A DNA stretch of 35,821 nt from Rhodothermus sp. Lineage in GTDB: Bacteria > Bacteroidota > Rhodothermia > Rhodothermales > Rhodothermaceae. Shown in pieces: positions 5,008 to 5,171 of the stretch. The stretch is taken from NCBI GenBank assembly GCA_026989375.1, contig JALSJJ010000002.1:1-35821 (forward strand). The letters are read 5' to 3'. Position numbers and translations under genes: made by a program. Each line of letters begins with the position of its first letter. Within the stretch, counting starts at the first letter, position 1. Below the pieces are notes generated by a model. That model was not told the origin of the DNA. It searched no databases and saw only the letters and a list, made by a program, of their open reading frames with translations.

Positions 5008-5038
5008 AAAAAGCCCCTCACCGCAGAGCGGGAGGGGC
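5008..5038 (-). terminator. Leader intrinsic terminator (attenuator) upstream of cobA
   Basis: Minus strand GCCCCTC-CCGC-TCT-GCGG-T-GAGGGGC followed by TTTTT, ending about 38 nt before the cobA ATG. Confidence 0.85.
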
Positions 5039-5063
5039 GCTGTATCAAATGATTGGCTGTATT

Positions 5064-5171
5064 TCAACTACAGCGGCTATAGGTACAGCAGACCCCTCCC
5101 CTCTGCGGAGCACAACACCGACAGCCGCAACAGAGGAGGAAGGTCTGTACCTGTACCGAATGCATAACCAT
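5064..5171 (-). CDS. Cysteine-rich leader peptide (35 aa, 8 Cys): MVMHSVQVQTFLLCCGCRCCAPQRGGVCCTYSRCS
   Basis: ATG 5171-5169 to TGA 5066-5064 on minus strand; Cys codons TGT TGC GGC TGT CGG TGT TGT lie between the arms of an inverted repeat; upstream of an intrinsic terminator and cobA. Confidence 0.7.
   Translation of the reverse strand: MVMHSVQVQTFLLCCGCRCCAPQRGGVCCTYSRCS

What the first reader, a model, noticed from the sequence alone, without database searches (positions are those of the whole stretch)
5008..5171. Cysteine-rich leader peptide with a textbook-like four-segment attenuator before the siroheme (cobA) operon
Seen directly: on the minus strand a 35-codon ORF, MVMHSVQVQTFLLCCGCRCCAPQRGGVCCTYSRCS, has 8 Cys codons, five within seven codons (TGT TGC GGC TGT CGG TGT TGT, 5132-5112). 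The RNA can form three mutually exclusive pairings. 1:2 pairs GGTACAG..CAGACC..CCTC.TCTG..GCGG with CCGCAGAGGGGAGGGGTCTGCTGTACC. 2:3 pairs CCGCAGAGGGGAGGGG with CCCCTCCCGCTCTGCGG (16 bp, one bulged nt). 3:4 is the terminator GCCCCTC..GAGGGGC followed by TTTTT, 38 nt before the cobA ATG. The Cys codons lie at the end and loop of hairpin 1:2, where a stalled ribosome would mask segment 1 and free segment 2 to act as antiterminator. Established: ribosome-mediated attenuation uses this geometry for trp/his/leu operons. Siroheme is the cofactor of assimilatory sulfite reductase, so Cys is a logical end-product signal. Inference: Cys-tRNA limitation opens expression of cobA, the Met8-like gene and possibly sseA. 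I do not know of a described example in this lineage. The ORF is below the track's size cut-off, so routine annotation would miss it.
Basis: partly seen in the sequence, partly recalled or inferred. Interest (0 to 1): 0.88.

Follow-up and report, generated by a model that had tools for sequence, protein, structure and literature searches.

The report
Cysteine-codon attenuator before siroheme genes
A short gene packed with cysteine codons sits in front of the genes for siroheme, the cofactor needed to make cysteine from sulfate, and its RNA is built as a switch that should turn those genes on only when cysteine runs short; relatives across the same bacterial phylum carry similar cysteine (often cysteine-plus-methionine) switches on their sulfur genes.

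Summary
Confirmed and extended. On the minus strand between metB and cobA there is a 33-35 codon ORF with 8 Cys codons (five of seven at 5132-5112), three mutually exclusive RNA pairings and an intrinsic terminator ending at 5008. All seven available species of the genus (Rhodothermus) keep the ORF, its Cys runs, the terminator and both alternative stems. In folding calculations the terminator forms with no ribosome or with a ribosome at the stop codon, and gives way to the antiterminator when a ribosome stalls at the first Cys cluster; no shuffle in 100 does this in any of four sequences tested. E. coli trpL behaved as expected in the same test. Beyond the genus, similar ORFs precede sulfite-reductase or cobA-cysH operons in most other lineages of the order that have them, and in six of six checked genomes of a sister group, where Cys and Met codons alternate. 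Best reading: a ribosome-mediated, Cys-tRNA-responsive transcription attenuator. The mechanism is known, and Cys-codon leaders are described in mycobacteria and Rhodobacterales. I found no description for this lineage, for siroheme or sulfite-reductase operons, or for mixed Cys/Met leaders. Translation, termination and cysteine response are untested.

The parts
5064..5165 (-). leader ORF, 33 codons from the start conserved in the genus (an upstream ATG at 5171 gives 35); MHSVQVQTFLLCCGCRCCAPQRGGVCCTYSRCS, 8 Cys codons
5112..5132 (-). first Cys cluster TGT TGC GGC TGT CGG TGT TGT; a ribosome stalled here is predicted to switch the RNA to antitermination
5070..5090 (-). second Cys cluster (TGC TGT at 5090-5085, TGT at 5072-5070); stalling here is predicted to leave the terminator formed
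5125..5157 (-). segment 1 (protector arm)
5082..5108 (-). segment 2, CCGCAGAGGGGAGGGGTCTGCTGTACC: pairs with segment 1 or with segment 3
5021..5037 (-). segment 3, CCCCTCCCGCTCTGCGG: pairs with segment 2 (antiterminator); its 5' half is the 5' arm of the terminator
5008..5038 (-). intrinsic terminator (3:4), GCCCCTCCCGCTCTGCGGTGAGGGGC then TTTTT; all 11 pairs formed in 7 of 7 species
   Evidence: a shorter stem at the same place was also picked up
5195..5224 (-). candidate promoter TTGCAT-18-TAAATT just after the metB stop; TTGC and TAAATT are kept in 7 of 7 species, but it does not reach the consensus scan's threshold
   Evidence: conservation; not found by consensus scan
4164..4970 (-). cobA, uroporphyrinogen-III C-methyltransferase, first gene after the leader
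   Evidence: NF004790 and TIGR01469 over cut-off
3417..4160 (-). siroheme synthase N-terminal-domain protein (Met8-like)
   Evidence: TIGR01470 over cut-off
2435..3277 (-). sseA-like 3-mercaptopyruvate sulfurtransferase
   Evidence: NF008557 best hit, below cut-off
5228..6388 (-). metB-like cystathionine gamma-synthase family gene upstream
   Evidence: TIGR02080 503.4 bits against a cut-off of 504.55
6530..6654 (-). SAM riboswitch in front of metB
   Evidence: RF00162, 68.3 bits

Best explanation
It is a ribosome-mediated transcription attenuator that reads charged tRNA-Cys. When cysteine is plentiful the ribosome passes both Cys clusters and reaches the stop codon; hairpin 1:2 reforms behind it and terminator 3:4 stops transcription at about 5008. 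When Cys-tRNA is scarce the ribosome stalls in the first Cys cluster (5132-5112), masks segment 1, and segment 2 pairs with segment 3, so the terminator cannot form and cobA, the Met8-like gene and probably sseA are transcribed. Siroheme is the cofactor of sulfite reductase, so this is end-product control of cysteine synthesis through its cofactor. Shown here: ORF, Cys runs, alternative stems, terminator, their conservation, and the predicted switch at the Cys codons. Inferred: translation, stalling, termination, and the response to cysteine.
For: Conserved Cys-rich ORF in 7 of 7 species although most other residues change. Both conformations fold in all seven. With a ribosome at the first Cys cluster the terminator probability falls (0.0-0.8 by codon and species, mostly 0); it is about 1.0 without a ribosome and at the stop codon. 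The stop-minus-Cys difference is reached by 0 of 100 shuffles for each of four divergent sequences. Positive control E. coli trpL: the terminator 5' arm is sequestered at Trp codons (0.6) and free at the stop (0.0). In two other families the equilibrium switch is also beyond all shuffles (G025, G019). Cys-ORF score upstream of sulfite reductases, one per lineage: 52 against a shuffle mean of 22.6, maximum 31 in 1000; nitrite-reductase control not significant, 107 of 1000. Cys/Met leaders with terminators in 6 of 6 checked genomes of a sister group, with the antiterminator directly after the Cys/Met codons.
Against: No transcription, translation or starvation data. Covariation inside the genus is thin: two both-side changes in 1:2, none in 2:3, one in 3:4. 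The promoter is weak by consensus. In some other families the equilibrium fold shows no switch and only the truncated (co-transcriptional) fold does, not always beyond shuffles. One sulfite reductase of the order (G034) shows no such ORF.
Confidence: 0.85

Rival explanations
1. A functional small Cys-rich protein (metal- or thiol-binding) is encoded here and the RNA structure is incidental.
For: The ORF is conserved in 7 of 7 species and very Cys-rich.
Against: Outside the Cys codons and the residues imposed by segment 2 (GG of GGGAGGGG) the peptide drifts; between lineages only Cys (or Cys/Met) codons are shared. The alternative stems lie inside the ORF and switch at the Cys codons.
Confidence: 0.05
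2. Cys codons act through translational coupling or Rho, as proposed for mycobacterial Cys-rich upstream ORFs, rather than through the intrinsic terminator.
For: Cys-codon upstream ORFs without terminators are reported for mycobacterial cys operons (PMC1262725); some Bacteroidota leaders seen here also have no obvious terminator (L216, L219).
Against: In this genus a terminator with all 11 pairs formed and T5 lies between ORF and cobA in 7 of 7 species, and a 10-bp antiterminator is kept.
Confidence: 0.05
3. A metabolite-binding riboswitch (siroheme, cobalamin, SAM or cysteine) controls cobA and the ORF is accidental.
For: Structured leader with terminator; a SAM riboswitch stands in front of the neighbouring metB.
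Against: No Rfam family matches the leader even at permissive E-values (best E 0.71). The conserved stems are the attenuator stems, and the Cys codons recur in unrelated leader sequences.
Confidence: 0.03
4. A plain terminator for read-through from metB with a chance ORF.
For: metB lies directly upstream on the same strand.
Against: The Cys run, segment 2 and segment 1 are conserved, and ORFs of this kind are enriched upstream of sulfite reductases far beyond shuffles.
Confidence: 0.02

Closest known systems
Classical ribosome-mediated attenuators (E. coli trp, his, leu)
   Same: Leader ORF rich in end-product codons, four segments, intrinsic terminator, predicted stall-dependent choice between 2:3 and 3:4; trpL gave the same kind of curve in the same test.
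   Different: Reads Cys codons; controls a cofactor (siroheme) operon rather than the amino-acid operon itself; segment 2 lies inside the ORF, and in this genus the switch appears even at equilibrium.
Polycysteine upstream ORFs of mycobacterial cys operons (Seliverstov 2005, PMC1262725; Canestrari 2020, cited in PMC13236596 and PMC9094748, not readable here)
   Same: Runs of Cys codons upstream of Cys-synthesis operons; regulation by cysteine reported by Canestrari according to its title and the citing papers.
   Different: Those lack conserved terminator hairpins and have the Cys run near the stop (PMC1262725), are leaderless, and are described as translation attenuation (PMC13236596).
uORFC-8-2 motif upstream of cysS in Rhodobacterales (PMC8632094)
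   Same: Upstream ORF with conserved Cys codons and an intrinsic terminator, proposed as a ribosome-mediated attenuator.
   Different: Two tandem Cys codons near position 14-15, controls cysteinyl-tRNA synthetase, another phylum.
Leader-peptide attenuators noted upstream of amino-acid operons in Flavobacterium psychrophilum (PMC9723704)
   Same: Same phylum in the wide sense; attenuation proposed from 5' transcript structure.
   Different: No Cys leader is described in the main text; supplements were not available.

Membership tests
Ribosome-mediated transcription attenuator (trp type) | short leader ORF with a run of codons for the pathway's end product | tested here: met
   8 Cys codons in 33; 6 or more in each of 7 species
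Ribosome-mediated transcription attenuator (trp type) | mutually exclusive 1:2, 2:3 and 3:4 pairings | tested here: met
   cells paired 89.6%, 94.3% and 100% across 7 species; both conformations fold in all seven
Ribosome-mediated transcription attenuator (trp type) | intrinsic terminator between leader and first gene | tested here: met
   GCCCCTC..GAGGGGC-TTTTT, 7 of 7
Ribosome-mediated transcription attenuator (trp type) | a ribosome at the regulatory codons favours the antiterminator, one at the stop codon favours the terminator | tested here: met
   in silico only; control
Ribosome-mediated transcription attenuator (trp type) | downstream genes belong to the pathway of the codon's amino acid | tested here: met
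   siroheme genes; in other lineages the leader precedes a NIR_SIR-family reductase or a cobA-cysH cluster
Ribosome-mediated transcription attenuator (trp type) | promoter upstream of the leader | tested here: inconclusive
   conserved TTGC..TAAATT, not recognised by consensus scan
Ribosome-mediated transcription attenuator (trp type) | expression rises on starvation for the amino acid | not testable with these tools
   needs experiment
Mycobacterial polycysteine upstream ORFs | no terminator hairpin; Cys run close to the stop codon | tested here: not met
   terminator present; the first Cys cluster lies 15 codons or more before the stop
uORFC-8-2 | tandem Cys codons upstream of cysS in Rhodobacterales | tested here: not met
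   downstream gene is cobA; the closest CobA relative is named Rhodothermus
Known Rfam riboswitch or leader | match to a covariance model | tested here: not met
   no family at gathering score in the leader and none near it at E up to 5

The most novel reading that the evidence does not exclude
Leader-peptide attenuators that read cysteine, and in the sister group cysteine and methionine together, are a main and so far undescribed control of sulfur assimilation across the phylum. They change sequence freely while keeping the codon run and an antiterminator that copies the terminator's 3' arm, and sometimes stand in tandem with SAM riboswitches. The window holds the version placed on the cofactor branch.
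Probability: 0.45. Interest if true: 0.72.

Novelty: new member of a known kind. Interest (0 to 1): 0.62.

Why it matters
It would give a phylum with little known RNA-level amino-acid regulation a testable Cys sensor, add siroheme and sulfite-reductase operons to what attenuators control, and explain conserved short ORFs that annotation skips. Mixed Cys/Met leaders would be a two-amino-acid sulfur sensor. The Rhodothermus version predicts a nearly all-or-none change in termination.

Tried and rejected
A Cys-run DNA pattern over the whole order gave mostly out-of-frame leucine- or glutamine-repeat noise and was not used as evidence beyond the window and G011. Looking only directly upstream of sulfite reductase in class-level relatives suggested no leaders there; this was wrong, because the reductase is not the first gene and the leader lies before sseA. 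Directly upstream of cysH in 40 regions from other Bacteroidota only a handful have Cys leaders (G181, G265, G165, G269); many cysH genes may be internal to operons, so absence there is not informative. Scoring each upstream region separately with a 7-codon window was too weak to be significant for most lineages; the pooled test with a 12-codon window, one genome per lineage, replaced it, so the window width was chosen after seeing the first result. Canestrari 2020 is not held in the library.

Full report
Observation. The sequence was read directly. The ORF from 5171 has 8 Cys codons, five of seven at 5132-5112. The three pairings are in the sequence: segment 1 at about 5157-5125, segment 2 at 5108-5082, segment 3 at 5037-5021, the terminator stem at 5038-5013 and a T run at 5012-5008. 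The leader folds at -78.6 kcal/mol, z = -5.2 against dinucleotide shuffles. It is the only run of its Cys pattern in this genome that looks like a leader. The neighbouring genes are a cystathionine gamma-synthase-family gene upstream and cobA, a siroheme-synthase N-terminal-domain gene and a mercaptopyruvate sulfurtransferase-like gene downstream. The closest CobA relative is named Rhodothermus sp..

Conservation in the genus. Six other genomes of the genus have the same place. Aligned in the right orientation, all seven keep an ORF of 31-33 codons with 6-10 Cys codons, for example MRSLQVQTFLLCCGCPCCAPHTGGVCYTCSCCS, VIPMQVPGLFPCCGCPCCCPHTGGACCTCSLCG and the divergent MLYRTASLGFLMCLCPCCGRHTGGACHGCSR. 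The start common to all is 5165 in the window (ATG in four, GTG in three). The terminator is almost invariant. Pair counts over seven sequences: 1:2 89.6% paired, with two both-side changes and 10-13 of 500 shuffles as high on the pairing and covariation measures; 2:3 94.3% paired, no both-side change; 3:4 100% paired, one both-side change. All three collapse when slid by 1-3 columns. Covariation is therefore supportive but thin.

The switch in silico. Placing a ribosome (footprint to 12 nt past the A-site codon) at each codon and computing terminator probability gives the behaviour expected of an attenuator: about 1.0 with no ribosome, low (0.0-0.8, mostly 0) with a ribosome in the first Cys cluster, 1.0 at the second cluster and the stop. 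Stalling at several earlier codons of segment 1 also lowers the terminator, as expected if masking segment 1 is what matters. For four divergent members the difference between stop and Cys is 0.80-1.00, reached by 0 of 100 shuffles of the spacer. The Rhodothermus leader shows both.

Beyond the genus: the order. In G011, another family, cobA is preceded by MSDRCCRCMCCASCMCMDGMCMTM... and a terminator, with cysH following cobA. I then looked in front of the NIR_SIR-family reductases that stand with cobA and/or cysH. Cys-rich ORFs include CLSCCGCCCTCTGCC (G052), GCCSTCGCCCMPC (G016), MNMCCCVDNTCCMPM (G011), GCPCGACGCMCM (G010), NGMCCCCM (G025), GCCMC (G013), VCCMCLCDGMCMCCC (G012), EICLCSSCRMATC (G077) and SACMCMCMCM (G019). 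The short ones (G013, and the genus's own sir leader) are not significant taken alone. In the window's own genus the sir-cysH operon has a second, weaker leader ending GRC[CR]CM[GC]. So in this genus and in G011, where cobA and the reductase are separate, both carry a leader. Summed over one genome per lineage, the Cys score is 52 against a shuffle mean of 22.6 and maximum of 31 in 1000; eight nitrite-reductase upstream regions are not significant. G034 has none.

The sister group and the phylum. In a second group of the class, six of six checked genomes have a Cys/Met-rich ORF before an sseA-sir operon, for example MNTQNQIHNFSMIPTTMCVMCMCCCMCMPRGSGTDMSK and MNQKKPTTNILAPAHRNMCCMMCCMMMPRKVVERIC, each followed by a strong terminator. 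The antiterminator (GGUAGUGG, or GAUAGCGGG where the terminator has CCCGCUAUC) directly follows the Cys/Met codons and copies the terminator's 3' arm. In truncated folds the 5' arm is sequestered at Cys/Met codons and free at the stop, reached by 1-13 of 100 shuffles. Further afield, short Cys-rich ORFs precede cysH (G143, G254, G198, G345, G181, G265), a NIR_SIR gene (G148), a cobA-like gene (G233) or a cluster with a cysteine-synthase-like gene (G191). Many other cysH genes show none directly upstream, so distribution in the phylum is patchy or not yet resolved.

Comparison with what is known. Ribosome-mediated attenuation is textbook. Cys-codon leaders were predicted upstream of mycobacterial cys operons without terminators (PMC1262725), shown to be cysteine-responsive by Canestrari 2020 (known to me through PMC13236596 and PMC9094748), and a Cys-codon attenuator motif uORFC-8-2 precedes cysS in Rhodobacterales (PMC8632094). 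Attenuation in flavobacteria is mentioned in general (PMC9723704). I found no description of a Cys leader in this lineage, on siroheme or sulfite-reductase operons, or of mixed Cys/Met leaders, but the library holds only open papers.

Limits. Everything about function is inferred. Genomes from the genome search are unnamed. The reductases are called sulfite reductases from their operon partners; their best NCBIfam models are nitrite reductases below cut-off. The ribosome model is a simple footprint.

Noticed in passing
window 6530-6654 (-): SAM riboswitch (RF00162, 68.3 bits) in front of the metB-like gene: metB under a SAM riboswitch, then the Cys attenuator for cobA.
   Followed up: partly
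L065 9548-9679, L067 5198-5328, L068 8082-8225: In three genomes of family f13 a SAM riboswitch stands upstream of the Cys-leader ORF in front of the sulfite-reductase operon, i.e. two sulfur sensors in tandem.
   Followed up: partly
L061 2333-4306, residues 590-658: The NIR_SIR-family reductase next to cysH in the window's genome carries a C-terminal MoaD/SAMP-like ubiquitin-fold domain ending in GG (NF041918 E 7.5e-10, below its cut-off), suggesting a sulfur carrier fused to the reductase.
   Followed up: no
L293 (G265), upstream of cysH: A short ORF ending in seven consecutive Cys codons (...NNPCCCCCCC*) lies upstream of a cysH gene in family f33.
   Followed up: no
L207-L211, L232: Leaders of the sister group alternate Cys and Met codons (CCMMCCMMM, CMCMCMM), suggesting a joint Cys/Met signal.
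   Followed up: partly
L061 upstream of 2333; L062, L079, L081-L084: The sir-cysH operon of the same genus has its own leader ORF ending GRC[CR]CM[GC]; no clear terminator was seen in several of them, so its mechanism may differ.
   Followed up: partly
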